From assembly GCA_022579005.1 (NCBI GenBank), contig MU401570.1, positions 37,537 to 101,536 on the forward strand: DNA of 64,000 nt. The letters run 5' to 3'. The notes beneath the pieces are model-generated. The model ran no database searches. It saw only the letters and a list, made by a program, of their open reading frames with translations, and was not told the DNA's origin. The position numbers were made by a program, and so were the translations under genes. The DNA is from Poronia punctata (taxonomy: Eukaryota; Ascomycota; Sordariomycetes; Xylariales; Xylariaceae). This document shows, piece after piece, positions 39,127 to 64,000 of the stretch (positions are counted from its first letter, which is position 1; each line of letters begins with the position of its first letter).

Positions 39127-41150
39127 GGTCGCGGTCTCGTTGGCGGCGGGCGCAAGGCTGAGAGAAGGTTGTGTGGGTTCGAAGAGGTATAGATCGGTAT
39201 ACAATGATATTCGACGATGCCTATATCATTATAGGCTGAAAAGAAAGAAATGCCGAATTTCCGGCGGAGTCGGCTTTGTCTAAATGAACGTGATCGTATG
39301 CGCGCCGTCTACGTACTCGTACTTGCTCATGTGCGATGCGTGTAGGTAGTTGGGAGTTTCAAACGGTGACTAAAAGAGAGGGGCAGAAAAATGAAAAAGG
39401 GCAAGATCCAGGGAGACCAGGCCGACGAGTAGAGAAAACGCAAGCAGATGGGCGAATGACAACGATTAGGTAGGTACTACCTTGTTGCAAAAAAGAAAGT
39501 GATGCTTCCCACAACCCTTCCTTTAGGACTCTTTTAGAAAGAATAGATGCCTACGAGTACCGACAGAGAGGTACTACGTGTAGGTACGTACAGTGGGGAC
39601 CCATTAGAAACGAGCACCACGATGTTTTACACCAAAACTCAACATGTTTAAGAATACATAACATAACAACAACATGGTCTAATATCTATTAAAAATAAAA
39701 GTATATAACGGCTATCAATAGCTTTTATATTATATAGGTACTTAATATATACCTACTTTTCTAATTTAACTATTAAAGAATATACTTACCTACTTTTTTA
39801 GCAAAAACTTAAAACATATATAATTAAATAAATAAAATAAGTATTAAATATTTCTTTTTTTATTTATATTTATTATAGTATGTCTAACATATTAAAACTA
39901 CCTATAGCCTTATATCTTATAAATTGACAGAGTTATTGCAATTATAAATTCAAAAAAAAAGTTTAGTTTTGCTCGTTTCTAGTGAGGAGTGACTGTACGT
40001 ACCTTATCTAGGACGCGGCACGTACTCGTACGCTAGTAGGGCTTATGTACATGAAAGTACTTGGCGTAACGCGCAAGGTAATGAGGTGATCAGGGTGGTC
40101 TACCGAGAGAGTTCGTCGTCCTTGAGGTATCGGATATGTACTCGCTAAAATCCCCGCTAAAATATGTACTGTGTACCTGGTGCCAAGCAAGGCGAATTTG
40201 TAGGCACCTACTGGGAAGCTTGACTCGACGCCTGAAGGGTTCAACTGCATATGGACCCCACCTTCTCTTTCGAGTATAGTTGTATTAGTCAGGCATATGT
40301 GCCTTTTGGTGCACGTACCAAGCCAGCAGTGCCAGCATATTTTCTAGACTACTACCTTACATCGTCGACTACGTGTATTCAGTAGAAAAGCACTATTGTA
40401 AATCCGGCATATTCGTTTTCAAGAAGCTAAAAACACAGGAAGGTCTCCTACAGAGTCCTCGATTTGATGGACTCACTTCTGTACGTACTCGGGAGACTAA
40501 CTGGGGTAGGCAGAGAGCACTGTGGGCTCTTTACCATGCTCCCTGAACTGTTTCCGATACTTTCCATGAACGGCTTTGTCAACTTGCTGCGTTAGCAACG
40601 CATTTACTCGCCTACCTGGGTTATAGCCCAACTCGGGATAAATATGGATAGAATTGCGGCGAATCCTGATTGGATAAGTAGCGAACAGCCGGGTATTGAA
40701 ACTGAAAGGACCACGCAGGCTTGAAATTAGCAAGTGTCAAATCCCCTTTTAGCAACAAAGGGCACTTCCACTGTTTCTTTTACAGCTACACATACGACCA
40801 CCCAGCATGTTATTGGATACCCGATGGCTCATCATTACCTAGGAACAAAGATGGGTTTGTTCCTCATGTCGAGGAAGAGGCAAATGGCCTTGTTTAGAAG
40901 ACGTGGTAATAGTGGAATACAAGGGATTTGGTTTCGACTGTCACCGGATGAGGAACTCAGCCGATGAACCTTTTATGCTCGCTTTGACATTGTTACTATT
41001 AGGGGATATATGGTATCTCCATACAATGGCTCTTTATCACAGGATTCTACTGATATATGCAGTGAAAACACCATCAAATGAATCTTGATTCTTGGAAGTT
41101 TCACATTTTAACGAAAATTCCGATCAGGAATCGGCACAGAAATTACTAAC
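39127..41150. other. Intergenic, DOT1 to GH16 gene
   Basis: Upstream regions of two divergent genes, about 2 kb. The middle is occupied by an AT-rich inverted-repeat element. TACTCGTA-type motifs occur near 39310, 40020 and 40485. No coding region is supported. Confidence 0.5.
39591..39995. mobile_element. Non-autonomous TA-flanked inverted-repeat element (MITE-like)
   Basis: A 405-bp strongly AT-rich block. Its ends are inverted copies: the left begins CAGT and reaches TAGAAACGAGCA, the right (reverse complement) begins CAGT and reaches the same TAGAAACGAGCA, with several mismatches between. Each end is bordered by TA, the target duplication of Tc1/mariner-pogo elements, and the CAGT start is usual for pogo/Fot-type ends. 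No transposase frame is present, so it would be mobilised in trans or be dead. The TA-rich interior is also consistent with RIP mutation of an older element. Confidence 0.75.
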
Positions 41151-44100
41151 ATGTTATTGAAAACTATTTCAAAGGGAGGCTTTTCCCATCTGCTCATCGC
41201 TCTAGGCTTTGCAACCCAGTTGGTGAAGGGTCAATTAGAACCTGACTGCAATCCTCTTCAGAAAGATTGTCCAGCAAAGAAAGCTTGGCCAAAGGAAAAC
41301 TACTATATAGACTTCACAAAAGAAACAGGGCCACCCAAAGACTGGACCATTGCCAACTATGAAGTCATAGACTTCACCCCCAAAGGCGCCGAGTTTACAT
41401 ATGGGAAGAAAGGCGATGCCCCGAACATGTGGACTGACTTCTACATGCTCGGCGGCCGATACGACGTAGAGATGCAAATAGCACCCGGACAAGGAATCAT
41501 CAGCAGTGCGGTACTGTGGTCCGACATTCAAGACGAGATAGACTGGGAATTCTCGGGTAACCAGCACGGCGAACAACCATTCCCACCCCCTGACGGAATG
41601 TGGACTGTCGAGACCAACATCTTTACACAGGGTAAGATGTGGGATGGAGCAGCGACGTATCAAAAGGACGCATACAAGCCTACTACACAGTTCCACACCT
41701 ACTCGGTCGACTGGGATGAGAACCACATGGACTGGCTGGTCGACAATAAGGTAGTACGAAGCTTTAAAGCATCGAGTACGCCGTACGGATTCACCTTCCC
41801 CCAGTCGCCGATGAAGTTGCAACTGGGTGTTTGGGGTGGAGGTGACCCGGCCAATGGCTACTGGACAATCCAATGGGCGGGTGGAGAGATTGATATGGCA
41901 AAAGTTCCTTATACGATGTATGTGAAAAGCGTCAACATCACGAACAAGTATCCGGCCTGCGAGTACAAGTATACAGACAAGGTAAGTGGTCCTGTTCCTG
42001 TGATTCGAAACGGCCCCGCGGTGTAAACTGACATGTATTACCTGATAACCTTATAGACTGGAAAGATTAGCGGTATCGACAGGATTCAAACTGGCTGTGG
42101 ACCTACTCCCTCGTCTATAGCCAAGCCTACGGAGAAAGCAGTCGTTGCGACGCCACCTGCAAAAGGACCTGTGAATGCAGATCTGAAGGCACAAGATGTC
42201 GGCAGCGCAGATGGTGTTGTTGGTTCTTCTTCGTCGTCGTCAGTACCAACTCTGGCGACTGCTACCGGCGGCTACCCCATTAAACCACCATCGACAGGTG
42301 CTACTACGGGTTCTTCGTCAAAACCGACTCTGGAATCCCCCACTGGTGGATATCCAGTGTCTCCAAAGCCTTCGACAGCTAGTGAATCTTCATCGAAGCC
42401 AACTCTGGTATCCCCTACCGGTGGCTACCCTGTTAAACCACTATCGTCTGCCGTTAGTGAACCTTTGTCAAAACCGACTCTGGCTACCGGCACTGGTCGT
42501 TACCCGGTGTCTTCGTTATCGTCAAAGCCGAGTCTGGAATCCCCTACTGGTGGGTATCCCGTCTCGCCGAAGCCTTCGACAGCTAGCGAATCGTCGTCGA
42601 AGCCGACTCTGGCTAGCGACACTGCTCGTTACCCGGTGTCTTCATTGTCATCAAAACCGACTCTGGCTACCGGCACTGGTCGTTACCCGGTGTCTTCGTT
42701 ATCATCAAAGCCGACTCTGGAATCCCCCACAGGCGGATATCCAGTTTCTCCGAAGCCTTCGACGGCTAGCGTATCTTCATCGAAGCAAGTGTCTTCGTTG
42801 TCATCGGGGCCAACACTCGTATCCCCTACCGGTGGTTACCCTGTTAAATCACCGTCGTCTGCCGCCAGTGGATCTTCGTCGAAACCGACTCTGGCTAGCG
42901 GCACTGTTCACTACCCGGTGTCTTCATTGCCATCGGTAGCTAAGGGGTCTTCATCGGCATCAACTCTACCTACTGGCACTGGCGGATATCCGGTTGCTCC
43001 GCCATCTAGCACGGGAGGGATCCTTAGCACCCTAAGCTCTCTGATTCTTGGAACTAGCTCTGCAAGTGCGTCCTTGTCATCGGTTGCGCCATCTGGGACC
43101 ACCGGCAGTCTTGGGCCGAGCGACTCGAAGGCCGTAACCGCGAGCACCATCTCTACAGTATATTCCACCAACATCTACACCGTCACATCCTGCGCCCCGA
43201 CTGTGACGAATTGCCCGGTGGGACAGGTCACCACTGAACTGATATCTCTAACGACTACGCTGTGCCCAGTAACCGAGTCTCGTAGCCCCTCATCGGTTGG
43301 TTCAAGTTCTGTGGCTTCTTTGACTGCACAACCGGCAACTTCCAAGGGTCCGGTCATCTTGCCTAGTTCCCCCTTGACAAGTAGCATTCCACCGTCTCTC
43401 GGATCGACCCAAACATCAACATCCGAAGCTATGCCGACAAGATATACATTCAGCTCTGAGATTACGACGTCCATCCTCTCGACCGTGTATTCGACGAATT
43501 TAGTGACAATCACGTCGTGTGCTCCGACTGTCACGAATTGCCCGGTTGGCCAAACGACAACTGAAGTCATTTCATTGTACACCACCGTCTGCCCCGTGAC
43601 AAACACTATCATAGATGGGAAGACTTTCAGTGGAAAAGCCGATAGCACTGCCCCTCCAGCCGAGGCAACATCGCCGGCAGCTATTCCATCAAGTGGTATC
43701 AATCGGAACACGACAAGCCAATCATCTACTTCTTCCTCGCCTGTTCTCACCACGTCCACTGTATACACTAGCAGTGTGTATACAGTCAGCACCTGTGAGG
43801 CAGGGTCAGCAGATTGCTCATCGAAAATAGGGGCTGTCACTACAGAAGTGATACCGTTATATACAACCGTATGTCCTGTTAAAGAGACAGCCACCAACAC
43901 AGCTTCATCCAAACCTACGAGCAGTGTCGCCTCCGTTTCCGTTCCCGTCACCACCCCTGTATACACCACCTCAACGGTATATTCAACAAACGTGTACACC
44001 GTCACATCTTGCCCTCCCGATGTGACGGATTGCCCGGCAAAACTAGGCGCCGTCACTACCGAGGTGATTGCCGTTTCAACAACCGTCTGTCCCGTATCAG

Positions 44101-45015
44101 ACAAGAGCGTGCCCGTGGATGATAACCATACGACAGCTGTAATCACACTCAGTAAAACCATCAGCAACACAGTCGTGGTTATAACATCGACCGTCACATT
44201 CATAGACACCATTATCACCACCACCTCGAGAGCTAAAACATCCTCCCGTACAGCCGCACTGCCCTCGGGAGGAATCTACAGGAACACTACAACTACTACT
44301 TCCGAACCCTGCACGACAATAACGCTGGGGAATTATTTCACAACAGTCATCACTTATGCATCCATCACGCCATCATCATCGCCCACTACACTAACTTCCA
44401 CTCTTACTCCTACAGCAGATGTACCAAGCTACTCCATAAGCCGGGATATAACCAACACCGGAGCAATGAGTACGAGTACATCATCATCTAGCAGGTCAGT
44501 TCCACCATCACCACCATATCTCCTTTCCTTTTCTTTTTCTCTTTCTCTTTCTCTTTTGTCATTATTATTCTTTATTCCATAATCAGTCATACTAGTCAGA
44601 GTTTCGTTACCTATACTCTTTCTGATACATATGGAAAAGAAACAGAATACCGACAACGCCCGGTCAAAAAACCACAACAATCACATCATCCGTCATCCAC
44701 ACCATATATCAGACCCTATCCGAGATACCACCCGGTAGTAGCAATAATAATTGCGTCTGCCCCCCTCCCGTAACCATGACCGTCACGGCAACTATTGCGG
44801 AAACTACCGTCACAAAGACGAAAACCAAAACCAAGACTGTTGAGCCGCCTTTCCCCTATAGTTCCGGTACTGGAATACCTGGAACGGGAACAGGAATCGG
44901 AACCGGTGTAACTAGACAGCCTTCGGATACAGCCGAAGCCGAGGCGACAGCTGCTGCGGCGCGTAGATGGTTTAGACGACATGGTCATGGTCATGGTCAT
45001 GGGCATGGTCACTAA
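41151..45015 (+). CDS. CRH-type GH16 cell-wall transglycosylase with long Ser/Thr repeat region
   Basis: Exon 1 41151-41981; exon 2 from 42057; C-terminus uncertain. Signal peptide (residues 1 to about 28, ending VKGQ), then a GH16 domain with the catalytic DEIDWEF at 128-134 and flanking Trp/Tyr-rich strands (LGGRYDVEM, WTIQWAGGEIDM). This is the Crh1/Utr2 family, which links chitin to beta-glucan in the wall. Next come eleven YPV-centred Ser/Thr repeats (about 42243-43000) and four copies of a module with STVYST.VYTVTSC and TTEVISLYTTVCPV (about 43140-44110), usual in fungal wall proteins. Two ends are possible. Reading on to 44582 gives a hydrophobic GPI-type tail (about 1118 residues). 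Splicing 44495-44645 (phase 2) leads to 45015 and a Thr/Lys-rich end with a Gly-His run (about 1212 residues). Confidence 0.85.
42243..43000 (+). repeat. In-frame YPV repeat array
   Basis: Eleven diverged units with the pattern K-P-T-L, three or four variable residues, T-G-G-Y-P-V, then Ser/Pro-rich spacers. Spacer length alternates between long and short units. It lies in the GH16 gene and codes for a probably O-glycosylated stalk. Confidence 0.85.
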
Positions 45016-45640: not shown

Positions 45641-47239
45641 TCACACCTTCATATCCCCAAAATCTATCTGAGACATGCCAGGTGTGACGGTTGGCGAAGT
45701 CTCATTTGATGAACCCTTCTCTTCTTCCACCATCACATCACTTTCGACGTTCTGGCCGCGACGAGCGGCTTTCAACTGGCTCCATTTCGCCGCCCCCACA
45801 AAGGCGCCCCCGGCCACCGTTATCGTTCCCGCCCACACCTGCGCCTTTAGGAATCCCCCATTATCGGCCTCGATCAATGCGCCTGCAGTTGGTGGACCGG
45901 CCAGCGAAGCGAATGCCAATATGGAACATACCATCCCAAATCGGGTCCCTAGTTTGCTCGGGTCTGTCGTCAATGAGGCGAGTCCACCTACAAATACTAT
46001 CACGAGTTTGTTAGACTAGTAGTCAAGTTCTTCGCTAAGAAGAACATATTGGCGCTAAGATATGCCCTATGCTCATTCTGGCTAGGGCTAAGCACGGTAC
46101 TTTTTGGCGCCTAAGTGCTATTTTTGATTTTTACGGGGGCACGTGGATGCGGGGCTGGGCTGGGCTGGGGTCCTGGGGATAATAATAATTATGACAAGAA
46201 CGAAATGATAGGTGTACTTACTTCCTTGAGTGGCGCCTGTAGCGAGGCCGTAAAACACGGACCACACATATAGACCCCCAACGTTGTGAACAGGGATCCA
46301 GACGTACAACATGATCCCGAGCCATAGGGAGGATACGATCAGAGCAGGCAGGGCGCCGAAATATCGATCGGCTGCGAAGCCGAGTAAGGGACGCACCGGG
46401 ATGCCCACCGCGCTTATCACCACGAGGAGGTTCACGGCATTCTCCGGGGCAAGACCGACGATGGAGGTTGCGTACGTGTTTATAAAGAAGAAGCAGAAGT
46501 ATAAGCCCCAGAAAACGAGAAACACGCCGACGGTAAAGAGGACGTAGGCTGGCTCATGGAAGGCTTCCAAATCTATAAGCGCACCCGACCTGCGCGGCGG
46601 TAGGCGCGGCCGCAGAAGAAGGTTGATGATGATGGTGAAGAACAGGGCTAGGTAGCCCTGTGCCTGAACAGCTCGGGCGAAACCAACCATCGGTTGGAGG
46701 TGCTGGACGACCAGGGGAAACAGTATACTGCCCGTACCACTACCGGCAGCCGCCATACCCAGCGCCATTGACTTGTTCTTCTTCCAGTACGAGCCGATAG
46801 TGGCCACGGCCGGCATGTACAGCACGCCCATACCGAGCCCCGTCAACAGACCCTGTGCGAGGAAGATCTGCCAGTACGTCGTGGCCAGACTAGTCAAGAA
46901 GGTGCCGAGCACGAGAAGGATCGAACCGAACAGGACCGTCTGCTGCACATAGCCCGCGTCGGCGGAGCGGCCGGAGACCGTGCCCACGAAAAAGGTGAGG
47001 AAGATCTGTAACGACCCGATCCATGCTACCTGGGATTCGGGTAGGGATAGCGCCGTCGTATAGTGAAGCTGGTAGACGCCGAACGAAGCGGAGTACCCCC
47101 ATGTCACCGCATTGATGAGATGGCCCACGAGAATCTGGAGCCAGGCCCTGGTGCCGCCATCTGGGGCCGGCCCGGGGTCCCCCTTGACGATAGGGAATAA
47201 CTCGAACGATCGGAAACGGTCAGAGAAACCCAATGCCAT
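45641..47239 (-). CDS. MFS transporter, monocarboxylate-transporter-like
   Basis: Two exons, 47239-46222 and 45996-45641, joined across a 225-nt intron (GTAAGT, branch CTAAC, acceptor GATAG), giving about 457 residues. The N-terminus has PDGGTRAWLQILVGHLINAV, the PDGG-AW motif that marks the fungal MCT-like branch of the major facilitator superfamily. About 12 hydrophobic segments can be followed, with GLLTGLGMGVLYMP, GSYWKKNKSMALGMAAAGSG and RPLLGFAADRYFG as typical loop and helix signatures. The second exon gives GIFVGGLASLTTDPSKLGTR, helices 11-12 and a hydrophilic C-terminal tail with Glu and Ser. It moves a small carboxylate or unknown metabolite by proton-coupled transport. It lies 3.8 kb from the repeat-peptide gene, so a role as its exporter is conceivable but unproven. 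Confidence 0.85.
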
Positions 47240-50200
47240 GCCTTCTCTTGGCTTGTAGACTTCTCTTGTCGAGCTTCTAGAGCGACTTTCCGTATTGAAG
47301 CTAAAACCCTGCGAAACTGTGGGACGGTCTGGGGGTGGGACTCGTGCCGAGGAGCTATGGTGGACCTGATGAAGGGAAAGACCTCATGGTACACCCTCCT
47401 TATTATAATCATCTACCAGGGATGATAAAGCGAAGCCGGAACCTAGGGCCCCGGGAAGAGGAAGGAGGACAAAGGAAGCCATGTAGGGCTATGGGGCTCC
47501 CGAACGGCGTAATCGGCGTAATCGGCGGTAGACTGTAGCTTATGCATTCTGTCGGTGAGGTATCCATCATTAACTGGGGGGCAAAGAACAGATGAGCGTA
47601 GAGTGAGGTCAGAAAGCCAGGAAGGAAAAAAGTCAGGTCGTAAAGGGAAATTATGGGGCCGTAGTGTATACAGGTAACTTAGGTAGGGTTGGATGAGGAA
47701 GGTCCGAGACACAAGTGAGCGTTGGATATGGCTAGACTGTTTTCAGATGCATCGGCTATCGTAGGTATGGTTATTTTAGTCAACCTTTGTTCAAAGGAAT
47801 AGTCCTATCTCCAGTACCGTACTTGAATTACCTACATGACAGGACGGGGTGGAAAAGTCTAGTCTATCTATGTAAAGACGGCATCGTCGTCGCTCTTTAG
47901 CGGCAAAGATATTGAACCATCACCGTGACGTACCAAGGCAACCTAGAACTTCCCTAGAGCCATGTTAGCTCTCGTAGATACCAAACAAGCCAATGTAGGA
48001 GGGAAGAGCCTAACCTGGCTCTTGAGACGAGTGGAACTTTACTGAAGGGTTATTAGTCAGACTTGATTCGATGAGTATACAGATAATTCGATCTATATTT
48101 CGTGTAAGCACATCCGTTACCGGTACGCTAGCAGTCAGATCCTCTCCGGCAACTCCTTCAAATCTGGCCGGTGATCTACCGTGCATGATCGAGCTACACT
48201 TAGCGTTTTGCGTGGATTGTCCTGATAATCCTCCAAAAGGGGTTTATATAACGCATTAGTACCCAACTACGTGCTTCTCATGATTGACTCCTTCGTTATT
48301 CCTATATTCTTTTTCTCTGTTTAGTCTGTAATCGAGCCGGGCCTCGGTAGATAGAAGTAGATATGTGGGAAGGAACGGTTGGTTCCGTTTATTACCTCGT
48401 AACTTTCTGATGCTTGGTATGGGTGTAGGTTCCAGCCCTGTCACGCCCACGTTTATCAACATGGCCAGTGTATGTTTGAAATGCACATGGGGGGTTCTTA
48501 CCTAATCGAGATGATCTTTCCATTTCCATGTTTCGGCGTTACATTACATCTCCCTCCTCCCTGAACCTATAGTAGCTGAAACGATTCTATAAATATCCAT
48601 AGGGCTTATGTTTGACTTACTGTAGAAAATTTCGTGTCTCACGACAGGCTCTGTTCATTACCTCAGCAGAATATCACTTATGTAATAATAATATTTTTCA
48701 TCCATGGTCTACGAGTACCACGCAAATGACTGTAGCCACAATGCTAAGTACTCGTAGGTACGGTAAGCCGCGGGAATTGGCCAATCAGGCTGACTGTGTG
48801 GATGTGGTCAAGGATGATCGTACATTTTGTGTTTCCCTCCTTCCTCCGAAAATTCTAAAAGGGTTGCTGTCGTGGTGGATGTCGAGTTAAGGTTTGTCCA
48901 TGCTAAGCCAATCCTGCAAGTCACACCCCTGGGAATTCGTTAACACCCGTCTTAAGGCTTGCATATCTAGTCTTCTAGTGGTGACGGCCCTTGTATGCAG
49001 GAAAGAGGCGATGGCGTTTCCTGGCCGCGGACCTACATATCCGGGCCAGGATTCCGGTATGTAGATGGCCCTATGGGTAGGTATGGAGGTTAGGTGTGTT
49101 GACTTTTGTTAAATGAGTTGAGTAATCTATGACTAACCCTTTTCCCCATTACTAATGGTGTCACTCGCCTAAGCAGAGACCAAATGCTTGGATCTCACGT
49201 ACATTCGGATATGGTCTGATGTTGACGAAATGCTTATCTCCGTTCCCCGATGCGACGTTGAAAATCTGATTTCTGCCTAGGACTCGCCGCATAATGGTTC
49301 TCAACAGTAAGTAGGACAACTAGAGAAAACGCACCGAGCGGTATACTAGGGCTCAAGGACAGTCGCTTGGCCTCAAGAACACCTGGTCGGACCTAAAAGG
49401 CCCAGACTGACCGCTTCTTGCTCGTGTTAGCGATCTCGGTGTTTTATGGACATTGGAAGGAGTGCATACTGACTTGAGACTGTGAGTGGGAGGCCAAAGC
49501 CGAGATTTGTACGGAGTCCATTACCAGATACGGGCAATCAGATAGGTTATCCTTACCCCGTAGCGAAATACGGTTCGGCTTCCAGCGGAAAACGCAAGTT
49601 CGGGGCCCCTGAACGATATGATGCTTAAATCAAGCGCAGGACGTTTAACTGGGGGAATCCTTCAAGACTACAAATCATGCCTTGGGAGGGACGAATGCAG
49701 CTCATTTCCCCTTGCGTATGTATCGTTGGTGGTTAAGGGTAACAATCTCGCCAAGGGGTGGTGTGTCACTGCTATGTCTTATTGGTGCCTTATTAAGTAC
49801 ACGTACAACAGTATCACGGTACCTGTTGCCTGGTTAGCGAGTTACTACTACGCTACCACATCTAACCGATCCTTTCGAATTTTCTGGACCCTCTCGGCAT
49901 GCTTTACATCTGAATATACAGGCCGTGCGGCTGCATCTTGTATGTGATGATGCGTGTTCCACCGTTCCTTTGCCGGGGAACCGGGGACTGCCCGATACAA
50001 TTTGGCACCTACCTACTCGTAGCCTAGCAGAATGTGAGCTTCTTCGATTTAAGGTACTCCCCTCGGCCCGGCTACTCTGTATCATGCAATACGGTGGCCG
50101 AAAGGCGTTTCGCACGGCAGTTGTTTTTGAACAGTCGAAGCGTATCTGAGAGGAGCTCCTTTACCTTGAAGTTTACTTTGCCGGGGGCTAACGCATTCTT

Positions 50201-51003: not shown

Positions 51004-52098
51004 TCAACCGAACGCGATTGGGCTTGCTGCGCTTAGTCGTAGAATCTGCTTCGCGTTAGTCTCTAGCCAACTTGGATCAGTCGGGGCTCGATTCTCGTAC
51101 TTGGCAGCATCTTGGTCGACGGCACGGTCGTAGAATTTCGCAGCGTCCTGATCAACAGCACGGTCGTAAAATTTAGCGGCATCCTGGTCGACGGCGCGGT
51201 CGTAAAATTTGGCAGCATCTTGATCAACAGCGCGGTCGTAGAATTTGGCAGCATCCTGGTCAACGGCGCGGTCGTAGAATTTGGCGGCATCTTGGTCGAC
51301 AGCGCGATCGTAGAACTTGGCAGCATCTTGGTCGACGGCACGATCGTAAAACTTGGCAGCATCTTGGTCGACGGCACGATCGTAAAACTTGGCAGCATCT
51401 TGGTCGACGGCACGATCGTAAAACTTGGCAGCGTCCTGGTCTACCGAGCGGTCGTAGAACTTGGCAGCATCCTGATCGACAGCGCGGTCATAGAACTTGG
51501 CAGCATCTTGGTCTACGGCGCGTCGGTTGTAAAACTTGGCAGCGTCCTGGTCTACCGAGCGGTCATAGAATTTTGCAGCGTCCTGGTCAACAGCACGGTC
51601 GTAGAATTTTGCGGCATCTTGGTCTACAGCACGTCGGTTGTAAAACTTGGCAGCGTCCTGGTCTACCGAGCGGTCATAGAATTTTGCAGCGTCTTGGTCA
51701 ACAGCGCGGTCGTAAAACCTGCACAGTCATGTCAGCTACCCATGTCGGCTTTATCAGGGGACGAGGAAACGTGCTTGGCCGTATCTTGGGCTGCCAAAGA
51801 TTTCAGGAGTTTTAGGGCAGCTGCTTCCCCTCGAGAATTGAGCCTGTGGACCCCTTTTGTTATGGCCCGGTATAAAGCAGGCGCGGAAAAGACAAAATGC
51901 TCACACCCATACGCATGTCCTCGACTAGAGGTACGTATAATCAAACGGGCCTCAGGTATGACTACCTCTGCACTGGCTACTTGGGAGTTGATATAACTTG
52001 TTCATTCGAACTTACTTGGCAGCATCTTGGTCAGCAATGGGTGCTGCCAGTGCAGTCGCCATCAAAGGGGCCAACAGGGCAATCTTGTTGAAGTACAT
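51004..52098 (-). CDS. Secreted repeat-peptide precursor, candidate UstA-type RiPP precursor
   Basis: Exon 1 52098-52016, a 297-nt intron (GTAAGT...TGTGCAG, phase 2), exon 2 51718-51004; about 265 residues. Residues 1-20 are a signal peptide (MYFNKIALLAPLMATALAAP). Then comes one DQDAAK and 17 tandem units of mostly 12 residues, FYDR(A/S)VDQDAAK, two of them in a 13-residue form with FYNRR. The tail, ENRAPTDPSWLETN to IAFG, is unique. Exon 2 has no ATG in this frame, so the gene is easily missed. A signal peptide plus perfect short repeats, close to a UstYa gene, is the layout of ustiloxin, phomopsin, asperipin and epichloecyclin precursors. Product, cleavage sites and bioactivity are unknown; dibasic Kex2 sites occur only in the two FYNRR units. 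A repetitive wall or adhesive peptide is the alternative. Confidence 0.75.
51101..51718 (-). repeat. 17-copy 36/39-bp coding tandem array
   Basis: Fifteen 36-bp and two 39-bp units fill 618 bases without interruption. Three neighbouring units (about 51318-51425) are identical at the nucleotide level, and the order A, S, NRR occurs twice in succession at the 5' end of exon 2, showing a higher-order 111-bp duplication. All other differences are mainly silent. Confidence 0.9.
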
Positions 52099-53313
52099 GG
52101 TGATTTGGGGGGAGATTCGAGCTAGAGGGAAGGTTCAGGGTGGCTTCTATCGGGAGAGGAGTTGTTCGATTTGCAAGACAGGCAGACATCGGGCAATCAT
52201 CCCACGAACTTGGGGTGAGCTTATATATCCATCTTTGCTGGAAGCAACCATCGGCTCGTCTCAAAAAGTCGGATAACCGGCTTAGCTCTCTCCCCTATCT
52301 TGACGGCCCCCCTCTCCCTCCCGAAGATCTGAGTATCAGTTAGCGAAGAGTAGGCTTACCGCCCACCCCGCGTCAAACCATCCCGTGATACGCACGATAT
52401 CATGGAGAGACATGGCCATCATGCAGCATCAACACCACCACCACAGGAGGACTGCAACCCTAGGACAATCTGTCGTCGGGCATGTCAAGCAAATGAAAAG
52501 CTTCGAGGACCGCACATCGCAGCTTCTGCCATGCTCTCGCTATCGTCTGTTGCGGGGGTTACCTCATGGTGACGGAGAGGACGGCATGTAGCCAGTCGCG
52601 TTGTCATCGCCACCGACCTATGCGTCCAATAGAGGCATGCAGGACGTGCCTAGAGTTGAATCAAGCTAGTTTCGACTGCTACGCTAAGTACGCCCGGAGG
52701 ACGACGATGCACTTGTCGACAGTCGTCCCTCACCATCTCAGCGCGACGTACCCCAATTCCTGGGCAGCGGGAACCCTCCTCGGTCTGAGTTGTTTCCTGT
52801 GTCATCCACGTTGGTTCTCCTATTATGTCAACCTAACGCGTCTGATGCCATTGCAACCACCACCATGATGGGTGATACGATTGGCCCTTGGCGTAGACCG
52901 AGCGATATACCTACTTGGTAGGATGCCAATGTCTGATATGGGCTTTCCGTGCATGAGCTTTTCTGCATTTTGATAAAGAAAAATGACATGTCGTGGATCC
53001 GCATCAGTCAGTCGCAGTTGATGCTACATTCCCCGCAAGCTAGCATAAGCCACATCGTCGGCAAGTATTGATAACGCGGTTGCATGAAACGGTAGGCAAG
53101 CGGCGACATGATGACAAACGTTGGATGGAACATCGTCACAGAAGGTATAATCCGGATTTTCGGATTCGCTTTCGGCGCCTAACGTAAACTATCAATACCC
53201 CATGATCTGAGCCATCACTCCCCCCCATTAACCCATCTCCCTTCGACCTGCCTGTCGACATATTCTCTACCTTTTGCCCAAAGCTCGCGAGACATCTATC
53301 CAAGATTAGAAGT
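52099..53313. other. Divergent intergenic region, repeat precursor / UstYa gene
   Basis: About 1.2 kb between the divergently transcribed precursor and UstYa genes, a natural place for a shared promoter. Open frames near 52385-52868 show no recognisable protein. No clear operator motif could be fixed by eye. Confidence 0.5.
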
Positions 53314-54542
53314 ATGGCAAACAGCAAAGAGTATCGCGAGGTCAGTCGTTCCTCTACTAGTGAGGATGTCCCCTTCCTAGGGGAAATACCTCGACAGCAG
53401 AGCAAGGTTCGACGAACTCTCTCCAGGCTCTTCTTGCCGCTTGTCTGTCATGGGGCCATCATGATGGTATACCTTGCCATCCTCACCGTCATCTTCAACA
53501 AGACCGGGACTCGCAGATACTGCCACACGCCCCTGGTTTACTGTGAGTAGAAGACATGTAGAGGGCTAGACATGTGTATTTTCAGACCGTCTAACAGGGC
53601 ACATTTAGCACCGGCGCAAGATGCCGTCGTCTACGAAAAGGTAGATTTCGATGGCGGGTTGTACAAGACAAATATCTACAAAGGTCCGCCTTCACCAGAG
53701 ACCGACGCGGCCTGGACGGAGCTAGTAGATCCAACCAACATCCGACTTGACAAGTCTACCCTGGAGAAGATCAATCGCACAGCACTGGAATTGAGCGATC
53801 ATTCTGGCTACCATGGTGGCATGGGCGTGCATCATCATTTGCACTGCTTGGTAAGTTTCTTGGAAGATGGTCCCGCTCAACTCTCGGATCGAAGAGTTCG
53901 TCTAACTCGCTGGCATAGAAATATATCCGACAAGCTCTACATCCCGAGTATTACAACTCAGAGCTCACTATCGACCCGGACCTGATGGAACATGTCTGTA
54001 AGTATTTATCGATGACTTTTCCGTTCTCCTTTGTCAGTCGGACGCCTGCCTTCTCACACACAAGAAACAGACCACTGCATCGACGACATCCGCCAAGCAT
54101 TGATGTGCAATCCGGATATTAGTATTTATACGCATGTCTGGATACCCGGATACAGGAAGCCGTAAGTACAAGTACACTGCAGTTATTTACCCAGAAAAGA
54201 CAGTGCTAACACGAAATTCGGCAGGTGGCCCAACTTTGATGTAGAGCATGAGTGCGTCAACTGGGACATCCTTAATGGTTGGGCCAAGGAGAATTCATTC
54301 GACATGTTTGAACCCAATCTCCTGATCCATCCTGAACTGGGTACGTCTAATTCTACCCTCTCTATTATTTTATTCGGATTTGTAAACATTTGCTCACCAA
54401 GACTGCAGGTCTCTCGTTCCCCATGATCGACGGCAAGATCCAACTGTCGGCATTGAGCAACAAGACCGTGTTCGTCCACCCAGAGCAGGACCTACACGAT
54501 CCCAGCGCACATGGCGCTCATGGCGCTCACGGGGGTCATTGA
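53314..54542 (+). CDS. UstYa-family (DUF3328) oxidase-type protein
   Basis: Six exons, 53314-53542, 53609-53850, 53919-53997, 54071-54161, 54225-54340 and 54409-54542, give about 296 residues with all phases kept. A single membrane helix spans about 39-61, so it is a type II membrane protein with a lumenal catalytic part. The junction VYSPAQDAVVYE is the family's start of the domain. Both copper-type motifs are present: HHLHC at 152-156 and HVYHC at 182-186, followed by CIDDIRQALMC. In ustiloxin, asperipin and cyclochlorotine pathways such proteins catalyse oxidative cyclisation or hydroxylation of peptide cores. The C-terminus is an unusual AHGAHGAHGGH run. The precursor-like gene 1.2 kb away makes a peptide substrate likely. 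Whether one UstYa protein alone suffices is open. Confidence 0.9.
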
Positions 54543-56040: not shown

Positions 56041-58560
56041 ATGGATGGTGTAGGGATTCAAGCCAACGGCATCGCCCAGGATAGATTCGAACGACTACAG
56101 CCAGAAGAAACCGTGGTATCACTCAATCGGCTCTGCAAAACATGCATCAACTTTACAGAAACTAGCCAACTTCTCCAAAAGTTCTCTCGCCATCAGAAGA
56201 TCAAAGACCTTGAGGAGGAACTCGTCGGTCTCTGCTCAGCCGAGGAGCTCAGAAACGGATACCTGGACGGTTGTCATCTATGTGCCCTGTTCTGGCGTGT
56301 GGCCGATGGCCAGCATCTATTCCGCAATGATGCCGAGGCCGACAGCCAACAGCTCAAGGTATTATTGACTGCTACGGCTAGAGATGCCAGTGGAGAGGGC
56401 GATCCTTTACATCAACTCCCATTCGTGTAGGTGGTTGGCGAATCCCTCTACCCCGCGATTGATACCCGGCCGACACTGGACTAAGAACCGGCTTTCAAGT
56501 GCCGCCACTGGGAGTCTTAGGATCAGACTGGTTAACCCGGACAAGGAAAGGCCTCGGTCAGATGCTGGCTCTATCGAAGCCTATCTCGAGACCAGTATGT
56601 TCCTCTTGTACAAAATGCCCCTGAACCGACAGGATTATAGCCTAACGAGACCTTTTGAGACCCTTCTCTCAACCCGGACGTATCGGGCAAGATAGAAGAG
56701 CCAATCTCCTCTAAATCCGACTTGAAGCTCAGCCAGATTGTAGGATGGTATAATCAATGCACCGAAACACATGAGAAATGTGGTCGTTTCTCAAACATGG
56801 TAGCGCCGTCGCAGCAGTTGCCATCGCGACTGCTCTACGTTGGAGACGGCAACAATGATGCTGACATCCGGCTTGAGTGTAACGTCCAAGATATCGCCAC
56901 CCTCGAATATGCCACCTTGAGTCATATGTGGGGGAATGACCCGTCATCTTACGTACAGCTGAAACAAGCAACTTTGGAGACGTTCAGAAAACAGGTGCCG
57001 GCTAATGCACTACCCGTCAAATACAAGGATGCCATTCGGATCACGAGAGCTCTGGGGTTGAGATACCTTTGGATAGATTCTCTGTGCATCATCCAGGATT
57101 CCCCAGAAGACTGGAAAAGAGAAGCGCTCAAGATGGCAGCAGTTTATGGTTGCTCGGCCTGTAATATCTCATACACGCACGCGCCATCGGAGGAGTCGTC
57201 CCAGAAATACTTGAGGGACCCGAGGGTTATTCTTCCATGCAGGTTGAGAGCAGCGGATGCTCGTCCAAGCCGACTCTCGGCGTTTTTCGGGGCGGATAAC
57301 CTATTGAGTAGTAGAAGTAGGCGACCGTCCCCGACGGCGATTCTGGTTCAGCCGGTTGCCGGCGCAATCCGTGCCAGCTGGTCGACAGAGGCCTACAGGC
57401 GGGTTTGCTCTCTGCTTTCTCGTGCCTGGGTCTTTCAGGAACGGATTTTATGTCCTCGCACCGTCTACTATGGCCACGACCGACTCCTGTGGGACTGCTG
57501 CGAGACGTTCAACGAAGAGTTCACCGGGCGTCTACCCTACGTACCACGGTCCAAGGGACAAATCTATGCAGCATTCGCTGGTGTGGCTCAGACCCAGACC
57601 CAGGCCCTCGCCAGCTCACTAGGACACCTGGATGGTCAGTGGAAGTCCATGGTAAACGAATATCGCAACTGTCATCTCACCTACGAGACCGACAGAGCAA
57701 TTGCCTTTGCCGGCATAGCCCGGGCGGTTCAGTCCCAAACGGGCATGACATATCTGGCCGGCATCTGGAAGGAAGCCGCCCACCTGGATCTTCTCTGGTG
57801 TGTCATGTCCAGGGCCTCGAACACAAACAAAGGCGCCAAGTTACCAGACCATGACGGACGAAAGCATCTTACACATATGCCATCTTGGTCTTGGTTCTCT
57901 GTTGCCTGCCAGGTCAACCCTGACCATGATGTTGTGGACTATAGCCTCTCTGCACTGGCTGCGCTCAGGTCCAAGGAGACGGTGTATCAGGCAAGTATAC
58001 TGTCCTTTAGTCATCCTAAAATGGCCGACGACCCCGATGTTCTCCTGTACGATTTTGAAGGCCTTGCCATAAAGATAAGCACGTATACGGCCCCAGCCAA
58101 GTTGAAATGGGAAGACGGTATCGTCCAACTGATGCCACATGGGGAACCGATGCGACCCAAGAAACTGGCCAAATATCCGCTTTACGATCCGAGAATGGCG
58201 ATGCAGTGCCACCTGGACGACTTATCTCTGAACGTCATGGACGAGTTGCCAACGAATGCAAACATGATTCTGCTTGGTTTCATAGCGTACCATGAGAACA
58301 GGAAAGGGGCGACGCGGCACATAATCGAATATCCCAACCCGGCTCCGGAAGACAACGATGAGGCGGCCGATTGGTGGACGAGATATCAATTCACCGGCCT
58401 AGTAACGGTCCCCGAGCAAGATCCTCCGACTGGCCAAGGCGACTACTGGAGACGCATCGGGGTTTATATGTATAGTGTAGAGGCTCCCTCTGCCGTCGTG
58501 GACGTGAAACTGCCTTTTGATCTCGGACTGAAAAGTCCCGAAGAGGTATGGTTGAGGTAG
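56041..58560 (+). CDS. HET-domain (heterokaryon incompatibility) protein
   Basis: Three exons, 56041-56426, 56500-56594 and 56660-58560, give about 793 residues. Introns of 73 and 65 nt (GTAGGT...TTCAAG and GTATGT...TTTTGAG with CTAAC) connect three frames and restore LHQLPFVAATGSLRIRLV. The N-terminus has a CxxC/CxxC pattern (LCKTCINF, GCHLCALF). WYNQCTETHEKCG precedes the HET domain, whose three blocks are plain: YATLSHMWG, RALGLRYLWIDSLCIIQDS, and later LLSRAWVFQERILCPRTVYY. HET proteins act in vegetative incompatibility and other programmed-death responses. They are variable, amplified in Pezizomycotina and often lie in accessory regions. Whether this one is an active incompatibility gene cannot be judged from sequence. 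Confidence 0.88.
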
Positions 58561-58893: not shown

Positions 58894-59568
58894 CTAAGTC
58901 TCGGACGGGACCCCAGAGGCTTGGAGTGCCGTGTCCTCGGCCTCCTCCTTACTAAACTGATCACGACCATGTTGGAACATACGATCAAAATCATATTCGC
59001 CCCACCGAATATCAGGACTGAGACCAGCAAACTTCCAAACACCATCGACTCGTCGGTACCAGTGCGTGTTGGTGCTATGTGCGTGGCCCTTGACGGCGAC
59101 CTGGGTCCTCGTGGCATCGGTGTAGCGTTGATGCGGTACCCGCAGCTGGTGCACACCGATGACCTCGTCGTCCGACACTCGCTCCCATTTGGTCCCGCCG
59201 ATGAAATGTTGCGTCATCAGTAGCGGGTCGCCTAGGACGCTCTTGCTCGAGATCATGGCGATGAACTCTTCTGCTGGCATCGCTTCCCAGAGTTTGTTTA
59301 GGAAGGATCGATAGTCGATCTGTGTATATGTTTCATTGTTGTCAGTTATTTTAGAGCTTTATTTGGAAGATGACGGACGGGAGACGGGAGACGGAAGACG
59401 AGAGACGAGAGAGAGGGGTTGGGTTCTCACGCGAAGAGTCGGGGCGATGCACTTCCGCAGTCTATCCCAGTCTTTACTGTCATAGCTGTCGGCCCATTCG
59501 ACGACGCAGGTCGTCAGACCTAGGTAGTCTTCGAATGTGATGTCGCCAACGCTATCTTTGGAGCCCAT
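58894..59568 (-). CDS. SCD1: Scytalone dehydratase (DHN-melanin biosynthesis)
   Basis: Two exons, 59568-59431 and 59319-58894, encode about 187 residues; the join restores [20 protein letters not shown]. The enzyme dehydrates scytalone to 1,3,8-trihydroxynaphthalene and vermelone to 1,8-dihydroxynaphthalene. It has the nuclear transport factor 2/SnoaL-like cone fold. Compared with the rice blast enzyme the numbering is one lower, and the active-site residues are all present: Tyr29, Asp30, Tyr49, His84, His109, Ser128 and Asn130. Other blocks are [26 protein letters not shown] and [20 protein letters not shown]. No other melanin gene is in the window, so the gene is unlinked or the cluster lies beyond. 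The C-terminal tail is about 15 residues longer than in the rice blast enzyme. Confidence 0.96.
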
Positions 59569-62239
59569 CTTCTTTGATGATTCTATTTAGGAACGGTATC
59601 GAGAGCAAGCGACCGGGGGGGATTACTAAGTGTTTGTCGTGTCGCACACACGAAAGAGGGATGCAATATTGAACGGAACGGAACTGACTGAAACAAACAA
59701 ACAGATAGAACGACGACGAACAATTCCACCAGTTTCGTTTCGTTTGGGTTATGTGAGTACCTACCTTGTCTTATTATATTTTTAAGTTTCTCTGGCATCC
59801 CGTTTCGGGCCCGTAAGTTTATGAGCAACTGAAATAGATGGATGTGGACGTCCGATCGGACTTTCCCCCACGGAACGCCATTATCTACAGGCATCTTCCC
59901 CGTAAGACATGGACATGGACTCCCATCGTTTCCTCGCTGTTCGAACACATTTTCTTTCTTTCTTTTCTACCTTGCCGCGTTTCGTTTTTTTGTTCGCCCC
60001 TTCTAGACCCTAGGTAAATACGCGAGAAAGCGAACAGCGTGCCGGGTATATATGCGTAACCTAACCTACATGATGTATGAAGAAGAAGGTAGTCATATTT
60101 ACGTAGGTACGAATAGGTAGAAAAGTGGAAGATGGATGCTTTTCACGATGGGGAAATGTGGCGTTGTTGACAGGGTCGGATCTTCTTCTTGGTGATACCT
60201 ACCGCATGGTTGTGGCTTTTTCTTCTTCGGAAACTGCCCGGTCCGGTTGGTCATTAGGTAGGTAGATTACTTGACTTAACAAGGCGTGTAGAGAAAACAA
60301 GAAAAGAATACACGGATATGAAGTATTACTTTGATATTTATTTACTTGATCTTCCTGATAGCTAGATTATTTTAGTATATTATAATGGGAAGAGAAAATA
60401 TGACTTGCAGGTTTAACGCAGATATATAAACATCGTGGGAAAAAGGTTTAAAAACAATATATTCATTCATATGTATCCTCGTAGTCCTTCTTGCGGAAAT
60501 GATACATCACTCATCTCGTCCCATCCCATTGCCACAAGGTCAGGTTTCACCGCATCTTCGTCCCGGGACTCGACTTGATCCCGCCCTCTCCCCAAATTTC
60601 CCCTCTCCTTTACCTTATCCCTTTGAAAAGAAAAGAAGGAGAAGAAGAAGTACAATTAGGTAATACCAGACGACCATATTTCTTTCCCCGTACAACTACT
60701 TACCTACCCGTATCATACAATAGTAGTGGACCTATGCCCAGTTCACGATCAAAAAGATATCATGGGTCGGATCCGGCGATAAACATAGGTAACGGGGGTG
60801 TGTCGCATATGGCGTAGGTATACGAGTATGCCCTCGGGCCGACAACACATGCTTTAATTCCGGGCTGGGCAACATAGCTGAGGTCTAGGCTTTTTTTTTT
60901 TTTCTGCCTTTGTTGCACCTGCGCCTCGGCTTGATTCATAAATATGTAGGTAGTAAACCCGGTCATATCTGTACTAACCTAGGCAGTAGGTAACCCGGTT
61001 TCGGGGGGTTTAAGCTGTTCCATGGGAGACAGGCAAGCGAAACCTGGTACCAAGGAGGGTTGTAATGCTTGGTGTGTCCCGGAAGACGTTTGATCTGTCG
61101 CTTGATTCCCATTATAACCCGCGCAAACCGCTTTATGACGTGCTTACATAGCCTAGGTACATACTTTAAACGAAAGCTCAATTCTGGAAACAGGGATAAG
61201 TCTCCCATCAAATAGTTACTTCTATTTAAGCTCGCGATTCGGCCTTTTGACTTGAAAACCGAGGGAAGGTTTAGCTGCAGCAGGAAGTATGTATGACTGG
61301 TTTTAAAAAAACGCAGGAGGAGTGTAGTAGCTAAGGTACGTTGTGGTAATGGAGGGGATATATTACACAGAAACTCCAGCGTACCTCCTCTACCGACTAC
61401 CGTACATGTAAGCTTAGCACCTACCTTACCTGCCTTGACTTACAAAAGTATAAGAGGTGCATGAGGATATCGCACCACGTACTGCAACGCTCTTTTCTGA
61501 GGCGCTGGACCTAAAAGTTGAAGAACCTGTCCTTCTGCTGTTAATATCTGTTATAGCCTATTTGTTGTAAAAGAAACAAATGGTTGTGATGACAAGCCCA
61601 CGAAGGCAACTGCAAAGGTCGCGCCCGCGATAGACTTTACCGCAAACTGCATTCAACAGGACGAGAAATGAAAAATGAGGCATGATACGAAAAACCTCAT
61701 GAGTTCTGATCAAGACTCATGGCTTTTGCTTTCTAACTCGGTTCGAATCTGCTCAGACGAGGCATACACACGCACGTGGTAGTGGCAGTCTTCTACCTAG
61801 GCAGGACAAGCCCACGCAAATATGAGTGCCATGTACAGGGAGTTGCTGGGAGGCGTTAATCGGTGGAAGAGGGGTCAAATACTCTTGTACTGTACCCTAA
61901 TGTCAAAATTTCCTACATGTAAACTTTTGCAAAAACATTCGCCAAAGTCTGGCAGTTAGTTACCTGCCATCACAAAGTCAATAAAGGGGAAGATCAGGTA
62001 CGCAAAACATGCCAGGCAGCTCTTTCCGTATGCACTATCCATCACTCTTTCCAACCTCCTCTTTATCTTGGCCTGCTCTTTCCTGAATATCAAACCTACA
62101 AACTAGGTACTCAAACATTTTCAAGGAAACCGAGCCCGTCAAGCAACCTTTTGGATAAAACTTTTACCCGACCTTCCCATCAAGCCCCCGAAATCTAGAG
62201 GTCGACTTGGGACCCGCCTACTCGTCAATTCACCAGAAC
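59569..62239. other. Intergenic, upstream of scytalone dehydratase
   Basis: About 2.7 kb holding the upstream region of the dehydratase gene. TACCTA-type runs, a poly-T near 60891-60903 and short open frames without features are present. No gene is supported. Confidence 0.5.
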
Positions 62240-62623
62240 ATGGCGCCCCTCGACACCCTCCCATCTAACACAACCCCGGGACACACGATGACGGCCGCCG
62301 ATCTCGGACAAATGATTGCCATAAGCTTCTTGGGATTGCTCGTTCTAATAGGTGGCTTGGTAAGCTTGGCGCGTGGCCGGGCCCCGAGTCTGACATATTA
62401 CCAAACGGCGGAGCAGATCGCAAAGCGGGACAGTAAGTGTCGGTGCAAGAAAAATAAGGCATGCCATCGGCACGGGTACGGCCCCAACGAGAGGGACTGG
62501 CTTGAGCGGTCGGTTGTCATCAATGGCGAGCAGAGGCTCGTCGCTACGCCGGACAGTGCTAGGTCTGGGTTCGAGTCTGCTCCTAACCCGTGCGATTCGA
62601 CGGTTGCGTTATTGAAGACTTGA
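62240..62623 (+). CDS. Small single-pass membrane protein, unknown
   Basis: An open frame of 127 residues from the ATG at 62240; a longer reading from 62207 would start with TTG. Not recognised. It has a short N-terminus, one hydrophobic segment (about residues 21-43, MIAISFLGLLVLIGGLVSLA) and then a polar region. The polar part has a Cys/His/Lys-rich stretch, KCRCKKNKACHRHGYG, which could bind metal. Codon choice and the clean membrane helix support a real gene, but no intron or family match confirms it. It faces the partial gene at the right edge tail to tail. Confidence 0.5.
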   Translation: MAPLDTLPSNTTPGHTMTAADLGQMIAISFLGLLVLIGGLVSLARGRAPSLTYYQTAEQIAKRDSKCRCKKNKACHRHGYGPNERDWLERSVVINGEQRLVATPDSARSGFESAPNPCDSTVALLKT

Positions 62624-62927: not shown

Positions 62928-64000
62928 TCATCTTTGTATGTAGAATCCTCCTCGACCATACGCCTCGTCTCTCGCTTCGCCGCGATCGGTACGAACACCC
63001 ACCATGTGTACGGGTATAGCGTCGATGTGCCGCTGCACTCTTGATCGCAGACCTACGTACCTGTCCACTACGGTTTTCTGTGCCCTCTCATCCGATAGCG
63101 TGTGCAGGGTCGTCTCAGGTCGCCATCTCTCGCGGCTCAGGCTCGCAACTGCGACTTCTGCATTGGCTACGATGTCCGATTGTGGTGCCGGATTTGGATG
63201 ATAAGGTCCCCTCAGCGCGGGCCGCAAATATGCCATGATCATGACTTCCAGCTTCGTGTCGATGGGCGTATCGGAGATGGACTCGTGTATTATGTGCACC
63301 GTCACTGTCTTCCGCGCTACAACTTTGACCACAGCATGGGGTGAAGGACTAACTGTCACGAGGGCTTCGCGCCAGGCACCGGCAGACTTATTAGAGTGTT
63401 CGATCGTCACCCACGCTATATAAACACCGCCGAGACGGAGCAGGATTTCCTCTGGGACGTTGGTCAGATTTATCATAGGGAACAAAAATTGTTGACCTGC
63501 CATTGCTGCAGCGACCTTGCCAGAAAACACAATCGGAAATGGCTTTTCAGGACCGGCGTCGTTGCCAATTACCGCCGGTAGTTCGTCAAGCTCTCCCTCT
63601 TCTTGGTGAAATGGGTCGTATGTAACATCCCTGGCCGGGTCGAAATTACGGCCAAGCTCAAGTTGGACAGCTTGTTCTCGAAGAAACGATACCTTGCCGG
63701 CATTCTTTTTTACGAAGGCAGGTTGTATCCGCCCCACCGTGCTCTGCGCCGGGCCCACGACCCTCTGAACATACTGGTTACCCACGACGGACGCGGCCTT
63801 GAGGCCGATTTCGAGGGGCAAGGTAGTCAGGCTGGCGCCGCGCAAGACGCTGACATCAGACGAAGTGCTCGCCAACCGGAAGGTCGGAGAAGGACATAGC
63901 GACTTTTTCTTCTGTTGTTGTCCCGTGCACATGACGACGCGCAGGTATCCGTCGGCAGCCTCGGCCGGGATGCGTAGGACGCACGTCTGCCGCGGAACAT
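62928..64000 (-). CDS. Conserved-looking protein of unknown function, C-terminal 356 residues (partial)
   Basis: The frame stays open from the stop at 62928 to the window edge, so the start lies outside. The visible start, VPRQTCVLRIPAEAADGYLR, reads straight into the frame that holds the first ATG at 63932, so that ATG is internal. Features: a mixed hydrophobic/polar sequence with LPLEIGLKAASVVGNQYVQR, an acidic linker (QEEGELDEL), and a possible all-beta region (IVFSGKVAAAM to VKVVARKTVTVHII). No catalytic motif, signal peptide or strong membrane segment is visible. I do not recognise the family. The long uninterrupted frame and codon use support a real gene. Confidence 0.7.
   Translation of the reverse strand, partial: VPRQTCVLRIPAEAADGYLRVVMCTGQQQKKKSLCPSPTFRLASTSSDVSVLRGASLTTLPLEIGLKAASVVGNQYVQRVVGPAQSTVGRIQPAFVKKNAGKVSFLREQAVQLELGRNFDPARDVTYDPFHQEEGELDELPAVIGNDAGPEKPFPIVFSGKVAAAMAGQQFLFPMINLTNVPEEILLRLGGVYIAWVTIEHSNKSAGAWREALVTVSPSPHAVVKVVARKTVTVHIIHESISDTPIDTKLEVMIMAYLRPALRGPYHPNPAPQSDIVANAEVAVASLSRERWRPETTLHTLSDERAQKTVVDRYVGLRSRVQRHIDAIPVHMVGVRTDRGEARDEAYGRGGFYIQR

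What the first reader, a model, noticed from the sequence alone, without database searches (positions are those of the whole stretch)
51004..54542. Candidate minimal fungal RiPP locus: repeat precursor plus divergent UstYa protein
Seen: a secreted precursor with 17 near-perfect units and, 1.2 kb away and divergent, a UstYa-family protein with both HxxHC motifs. Known: dikaritin-type RiPPs (ustiloxin, phomopsin, asperipin, epichloecyclins) combine a signal peptide, core repeats and UstYa oxidases. Inference: the Phe-Tyr pair after Lys in every unit is the likely core start and cross-link site. The unit differs from the published cores I know, so the product may be undescribed.
Basis: partly seen in the sequence, partly recalled or inferred. 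Interest (0 to 1): 0.88.

Follow-up and report, generated by a model that had tools for sequence, protein, structure and literature searches.

The report
Fungal peptide precursor lacking usual cleavage sites
A fungus carries a gene for a probably secreted protein made of 17 copies of a 12-letter peptide beside a gene of an enzyme family whose members cross-link such peptides, so it may make an undescribed cyclic peptide, but the protein lacks the usual cutting sites in most copies.

Summary
On the minus strand lies a spliced 265-aa protein: signal-like N-terminus, 17 units (15 FYDR[A/S]VDQDAAK, 2 FYNRRAVDQDAAK), short tail. It diverges from an intact 296-aa UstYa (PF11807, 182.7 bits) with both HxxHC motifs, 1,215 bp away. 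The units differ almost only at silent sites (pN/pS 0.023). Two KR-type repeat genes of the same genome also sit divergently upstream of UstYa genes; these three were the only arrays over threshold in 273 kb scanned, covering 10 of 15 UstYa-bearing contigs. A UstYa-modified RiPP precursor is the best reading. Two corrections: in two relatives Tyr is kept in every unit but Phe is not, so Tyr is the likelier modification site; and dibasic Kex2 sites are absent from 15 of 17 units. It works like a dikaritin and fits the definition by UstYa gene, but fails the dibasic criterion, so I do not file it as one: release would need cuts at single Lys or Arg, or not occur. New variant of a known kind.

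The parts
51004..52098 (-). Repeat precursor gene, 265 aa, two exons (52098-52016 and 51718-51004)
   Evidence: Spliced translation with GT..AG intron that rejoins the Lys codon AA|G before the first unit
52042..52098 (-). Signal-peptide-like N-terminus MYFNKIALLAPLMATALAA
   Evidence: Hydropathy 2.15 over residues 6-19; similar start in X. longipes P0002
51100..51717 (-). Array of 17 units, FYDR[A/S]VDQDAAK (15) and FYNRRAVDQDAAK (2)
51607..51645 (-). Unit 3, FYNRRAVDQDAAK, one of only two dibasic (RR) sites
51496..51534 (-). Unit 6, FYNRRAVDQDAAK, second dibasic (RR) site
51004..51099 (-). Non-repeat tail YENRAPTDPSWLETNAKQILRLSAASPIAFG and stop
52099..53313 (.). 1,215-bp divergent intergenic region, possible shared promoter
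   Evidence: Distance; the promoter role is inference
53314..54542 (+). UstYa-family gene, exons 53314-53542, 53609-53850, 53919-53997, 54071-54161, 54225-54340, 54409-54542; 296 aa, one hydrophobic N-terminal stretch, HHLHC and HVYHC
   Evidence: Splicing; PF11807 182.7 bits; 87% identical relative in Xylariaceae sp. FL0594; motifs and hydropathy

Best explanation
A two-gene RiPP locus of the UstYa (DUF3328) kind. The precursor enters the secretory pathway by its signal peptide (inferred from sequence). The UstYa protein, anchored by one N-terminal membrane helix with its HxxHC..HxxHC domain in the lumen, acts as a copper oxidase on the Tyr of each unit and makes a Tyr-based cross-link (inferred from family biochemistry). 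Units are then released by a protease cutting at single basic residues: after the conserved Lys (giving FYDRAVDQDAA after trimming), or after Arg in the alternative register; RR occurs only in units 3 and 6. UstYa identity, divergent pairing and constraint on the repeat's protein sequence are shown; modification, cleavage and product are inferred.
For: UstYa is intact, with both motifs and consensus splice sites. Repeat units are held at protein level: pN/pS 0.023. The same genome has two KR-type precursor-UstYa pairs in the same divergent layout: C5 (KR in each of 11 units, gap 796 bp) and C350 (KR between units, about 10 units, gap 1,200 bp; UstYa start codons inferred by eye); with the window's these are the only three arrays over threshold in 273,234 bases scanned, covering 10 of 15 UstYa-bearing contigs. 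Relatives of both proteins carry the name Xylaria longipes (precursor P0002; UstYa P0004 71%), though in different records. Tyr is in 30 of 30 units of three proteins; Tyr is the residue cross-linked in ustiloxin, asperipin and phomopsin and is commoner in UstYa-linked repeats, 65.6% against 38.2% (PMC7329392 section 7). A model of the 87% relative P0003 puts each HxxHC on its own helix (150-165, 178-197) behind a confident N-terminal helix, as reported for the copper enzyme CctR (PMC12435403, first of three parts read). Single-UstYa precedent: AprY of asperipin (PMC6514808 passages).
Against: No dibasic site in 15 of 17 units, whereas dikaritin precursors are described as dibasic-separated (PMC9769878 passage). 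No tyrosinase or S41 peptidase hit on this contig: 0 of 20 and 0 of 2 genome hits. Conserved synteny not tested. UstYa proteins also serve non-RiPP pathways (PMC12048977 section 22). Of 10 UstYa-bearing contigs surveyed, 7 showed no repeat array, and five more were not read. The model's mean pLDDT is only 64.8 and pTM 0.47, and it is of P0003, not of the window protein.
Confidence: 0.62

Rival explanations
1. The precursor gives linear, unmodified secreted peptides (signal, effector or antimicrobial), cut at single basic residues; the UstYa neighbour belongs to another pathway or is unused.
For: 6,120 of 7,878 repeat precursors have no UstYa gene among the 15 nearest genes (PMC7329392 section 7). 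Ends after single Arg, and products ending in Lys, were seen for some repeat proteins expressed in Pichia (PMC9769878 passage).
Against: Immediate divergent adjacency seen three times in this genome; Tyr kept in every unit; both proteins have relatives in X. longipes.
Confidence: 0.18
2. A partly degenerate canonical dikaritin: the ancestral unit ended in RR/KR (register ...RR|[A/S/D]xxDQDAAKFYD) and most units have lost the second basic residue, so Kex2 still cuts at RR units and poorly, or at single Arg, elsewhere.
For: RR occurs at the same place in units 3 and 6 here, in 3 of 7 units of P0001 and 2 of 6 of P0002. BLASTP aligns the KR of the C5 precursor with this Arg (E 4e-5 for one comparison); 88 of 5,000 unit-permuted versions with the leader scored as high.
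Against: For the units alone 1,278 of 5,000 scrambled versions score as high, so homology to C5 is not shown. Arg after YD is absent in 2 of 6 units of P0002 (YDL, YDH), whereas the final Lys is in all six. The very low pN/pS argues against decay.
Confidence: 0.13
3. An uncut secreted repeat protein (cell-wall or matrix component) in which UstYa cross-links Tyr residues within or between whole chains.
For: Units 7-17 hold no dibasic site over 132 residues; the DQDAAK part is as constrained as the part around Tyr.
Against: No precedent that I recall for UstYa acting on an uncut structural protein; Lys at every unit end offers a cut site.
Confidence: 0.05

Closest known systems
Asperipin-2a locus of Aspergillus flavus (aprA, aprY, aprT, aprR)
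   Same: Small locus, Tyr-containing repeat precursor, a single UstYa homologue (PMC6514808 passages); here an MFS_1 frame (46121-47383) lies 3.6 kb from the precursor's end
   Different: Core FYYTGY against a FYDRAV-type unit; no reductase domain among the 20 neighbouring frames scanned; asperipin is listed among Kex2-processed dikaritins (PMC9769878 passage), this one has no dibasic site in most units
Ustiloxin and phomopsin loci
   Same: Repeat precursor plus UstYa homologues; Tyr in each core (PMC6514808 passages)
   Different: No tyrosinase or S41 peptidase hit on the contig; no methyltransferase domain among the 20 neighbouring frames scanned; no KR flanks. P450, FMO and other tailoring genes were not searched for separately
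Kex2-processed repeat proteins (KEPs)
   Same: Signal-like N-terminus and more than three tandem repeats of at least 8 aa
   Different: Repeats are not separated by KR, KK, RK or RR (criterion in PMC7329392 section 13)
Two further UstYa pairs of the same genome, C5 (DAAYREGAWGKRDVEA) and C350 (SGDAVPWNAVGSEKR)
   Same: Divergent layout, tandem repeats, UstYa neighbour
   Different: KR between units; C350 units have Trp and no Tyr

Membership tests
UstYa / DUF3328 (PF11807) | Match over the family's curated score | tested here: met
   182.7 bits against 25
UstYa / DUF3328 (PF11807) | HxxHC(x)nHxxHC motif | tested here: met
   HHLHC 152, HVYHC 182; both His and the Cys of the first motif invariant, those of the second nearly so, in 16 aligned sequences
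UstYa / DUF3328 (PF11807) | Single N-terminal membrane helix, lumenal domain | tested here: met
   Hydropathy peak at residues 43-61; helix 30-67 in the model of the 87% relative; topology itself is inferred
UstYa / DUF3328 (PF11807) | Copper-dependent oxidation of a substrate | not testable with these tools
   Reported for CctR in PMC12435403 (first of three parts read)
Dikaritin | Signal peptide and multiple near-identical core repeats | tested here: met
   no dedicated signal-peptide predictor
Dikaritin | Cores separated by dibasic KEX2 sites | tested here: not met
   Only two RR in 265 aa; description in PMC9769878 passage
Dikaritin | UstYa (DUF3328) gene in the cluster, given as the defining feature in a 2021 review cited in PMC12048977 section 22 | tested here: met
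Dikaritin | Cyclised product | not testable with these tools
   No chemistry or expression data
KEP (Umemura 2020) | At least 3 tandem repeats of 8 aa or more between KR, KK, RK or RR | tested here: not met
   Criterion read in PMC7329392 section 13; two dibasic sites only
Phomopsin/ustiloxin subtype | Tyrosinase and S41 peptidase in the cluster | tested here: not met
   No hit of either family on contig C117 (exon-wise search, counts are lower bounds)
Asperipin-like minimal cluster | Precursor, one UstYa, transporter, reductase | tested here: inconclusive
   Precursor, UstYa and an MFS frame present; no reductase domain among the 20 frames scanned; co-regulation unknown

The most novel reading that the evidence does not exclude
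A UstYa pathway that does not depend on dibasic Kex2 cutting: the enzyme modifies Tyr in an uncut polyprotein, and release occurs at a single conserved Lys by another secretory-pathway or extracellular protease, or not at all, giving a cross-linked repeat protein. Pipelines that demand dibasic sites would miss this class.
Probability: 0.3. Interest if true: 0.7.

Novelty: new variant of a known kind. Interest (0 to 1): 0.45.

Why it matters
Repeat-precursor/UstYa pairs are common (1,758 in the 2020 survey), so another pair alone is routine. What stands out is a strongly constrained precursor, with relatives in Xylaria longipes and an unnamed assembly, that fails the dibasic criterion used to find such genes. 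If its peptide is cyclic, counts made that way are underestimates and dibasic cutting is not essential to the pathway. The genome also holds two KR-type pairs, which could serve as internal controls.

Tried and rejected
Homology to the C5 precursor: BLASTP E 4e-5, 88 of 5,000 permuted versions as good with the leader, but 1,278 of 5,000 for the units alone, so it is left as a lead only. A second precursor copy in the genome: the only other match was a low-complexity KRERAV-rich frame, L011. Pfam matches of the precursor: NSF, the 12-position AdAR repeat model, scored 39.5, over its cut-off of 27, but with 0 stretches passing on their own; I take it as a sum over many copies of a short aromatic-plus-Ala-Ala pattern, not as an NSF relative; NCAB1 (22.6 against 27) and DUF445 (18.8 against 33.8) are under their cut-offs. 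A profile search for more distant precursors found only P0001 again; both precursor searches scored only the candidates sharing most words (7,996 and 7,993). P0001 carries a stretch between units that looks like a translated intron, and P0002 departs from the repeats after about residue 108; both may be faulty gene models. The unit pattern demanded YD, so the Tyr count was checked by reading the contiguous units. Solved-structure search with P0003: no match. Fold search was not run because the model is weak (pLDDT 64.8, pTM 0.47). The prokaryote and viral collections were not searched. Paper searches brought nothing more on monobasic UstYa precursors beyond PMC9769878.

Full report
What is there. 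The window lies in a 45-Mb genome of 573 contigs, unnamed here; the closest UstYa relatives are from Xylariaceae (87% Xylariaceae sp. FL0594, 71% Xylaria longipes), so it is probably a xylarialean ascomycete (inference). At 52098-51004 on the minus strand a two-exon gene encodes 265 aa: a signal-like N-terminus, PIADQDAAK, 17 units, and a 31-residue tail. Splicing rebuilds the Lys codon just before the first unit. At 53314-54542 on the plus strand a six-exon gene encodes a 296-aa UstYa protein. The start codons are 1,215 bp apart and the genes diverge.

More than chance. There are 14 distinct DNA versions among the 17 units, silent differences are near saturation (pS 0.795) and protein-changing ones rare (pN 0.018), ratio 0.023 (one inserted codon in two units dropped before counting; tandem copies are not independent). 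The constraint covers the whole unit, not only the part next to Tyr.

Internal comparison. The genome shows 27 UstYa HMM matches, counted exon by exon, on 15 contigs. I had DNA around 10 of these 15 contigs, the window's included, plus the window's flanks: 273,234 bases, in which 7,336 bases of the fetched stretches read N. I scanned open frames of at least 50 aa for tandem repeats of 6-45 aa. Apart from other frames of the same DNA, three arrays passed the threshold: the window's, one on C5 and one on C350. Each lies directly upstream of a UstYa gene and diverges from it, with gaps of 1,215, 796 and 1,200 bp (UstYa starts on C5 and C350 chosen by eye, UstYa matches). C5 and C350 have KR between units. 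A looser repeat in a Ser/Thr-rich frame beside the GH16 frame (TRF 42603-42720) was below the scan's threshold. The random-region control that I planned was not obtained.

Relatives. The protein database gave two precursor relatives: P0002 of X. longipes (CHU98_g7308), whose N-terminus MYFSKLALL resembles the window's, and P0001 from an unnamed assembly. Profile search added none. Units in P0002 read VYDRSPLVAQDAAK, LYDLSTLAGQDAAK, VYDRRDQGTAK, FYDHPAVAEQDAAK, LYDRRDQDAAK, AYDRSTLAGQDAAK; P0001 mixes FYDRRDQDAAK (3) and FYDR[S/A]PVADQDAAK (4, the last cut off before Lys). Tyr is kept in 30 of 30 units; Phe in only 1 of 6 in P0002; the final Lys in every unit not cut off by the protein's end; Arg after YD is absent in 2 of 6 in P0002. 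So Tyr and Lys, rather than Phe-Tyr, carry the signal.

Processing. KEPs are defined by repeats between KR, KK, RK or RR (PMC7329392 section 13), and dikaritin precursors are described as having cores separated by dibasic residues (PMC9769878 passage). Here RR occurs twice, in units 3 and 6. A survey says 'almost all' of the Aspergillus precursors of Nagano et al. have KEX2 sites (PMC6339444 passage), so exceptions may be known. Cleavage after single Arg, and products ending in Lys, were reported for some repeat proteins expressed in Pichia (PMC9769878 passage), so a single-residue cut is plausible. Two registers remain: after the conserved Lys, or after Arg. A match to the C5 precursor favoured the second but failed its control for the units alone.

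Enzyme. The family is reported to be binuclear copper enzymes, with four His in a plane on paired helices (PMC12435403, first of three parts read). A model of the 87% relative P0003 from 15 sequences has mean pLDDT 64.8; the N-terminal helix is confident and the two HxxHC motifs fall on separate helices at 150-165 and 178-197. The window protein itself was not modelled. No sequence match to a solved structure was found for P0003.

Neighbours. GH16 (41115-42026), MFS (46121-47383), HET domain (56659-58557), scytalone dehydratase (58897-59358), riboflavin kinase domain (62931-63998, cut by the window's end). Four other frames in that call of ten were two with no match and two on the right flank; ten further short frames had no Pfam match. 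Frame 62159-62620 also had none. No tyrosinase or S41 peptidase hit on the contig. Only the MFS gene could plausibly belong to the pathway, by analogy with the asperipin transporter; this is not shown.

Verdict. A UstYa-linked repeat precursor is well supported by anatomy and by the genome's two other pairs. It works like a dikaritin. By the definition that rests on a DUF3328 gene (cited in PMC12048977 section 22) it would count as one; by the dibasic criterion it does not, and the product is unknown, so I do not file it as one. In the held library no paper contained the strings DQDAAK, QDAAKFYDR, FYDRAV or AYREGAWG; that library lacks most subscription papers. A survey of Hypoxylaceae and Xylaria hypoxylon sought RiPPs by similarity to known precursors and said that it could not judge the true diversity (PMC8403587 passages). 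Papers: PMC7329392 outline and sections 6 (part 1 of 2), 7 and 13; PMC12048977 outline and section 22; PMC12435403 first part of three; passages only of PMC6514808, PMC9632046, PMC6339444, PMC8403587, PMC10512285 and PMC9769878.

Noticed in passing
L031 7919-8599 (minus) and UstYa start at 9306 (plus); G000 contig C5: Second UstYa pair: MRFFAFAALACASTVIAAPTAPQDAA then 11 copies of YREGAWGKR, a KR-type precursor divergent from UstYa.
   Followed up: partly
L035 7173-7907 (minus) and UstYa start at 8961 (plus); G000 contig C350: Third UstYa pair: about 10 units SGDAVPWNAVGSEKR with KR and Trp but no Tyr, so a Tyr cross-link is not possible there.
   Followed up: partly
window 54500-54542: UstYa ends in a His-rich tail (AHGAHGAHGGH), also in P0003 and, in other forms, P0006 and P0007; could bind metal. 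Absent from several relatives.
   Followed up: no
L039 7287-9608 (minus), G000 C117: P-type ATPase with a PCA1-type heavy-metal domain about 17 kb beyond the UstYa gene; possibly coincidence, but UstYa enzymes are reported to need copper.
   Followed up: no
window 58897-59358: Scytalone dehydratase exon (PF02982, 228.9 bits); the enzyme is known from melanin synthesis (recalled).
   Followed up: no
window 41112-44582: GH16 domain frame followed by a long Ser/Thr-rich frame with SKPTLxSxTGGYPV-like repeats, suggesting a wall-anchored enzyme.
   Followed up: no
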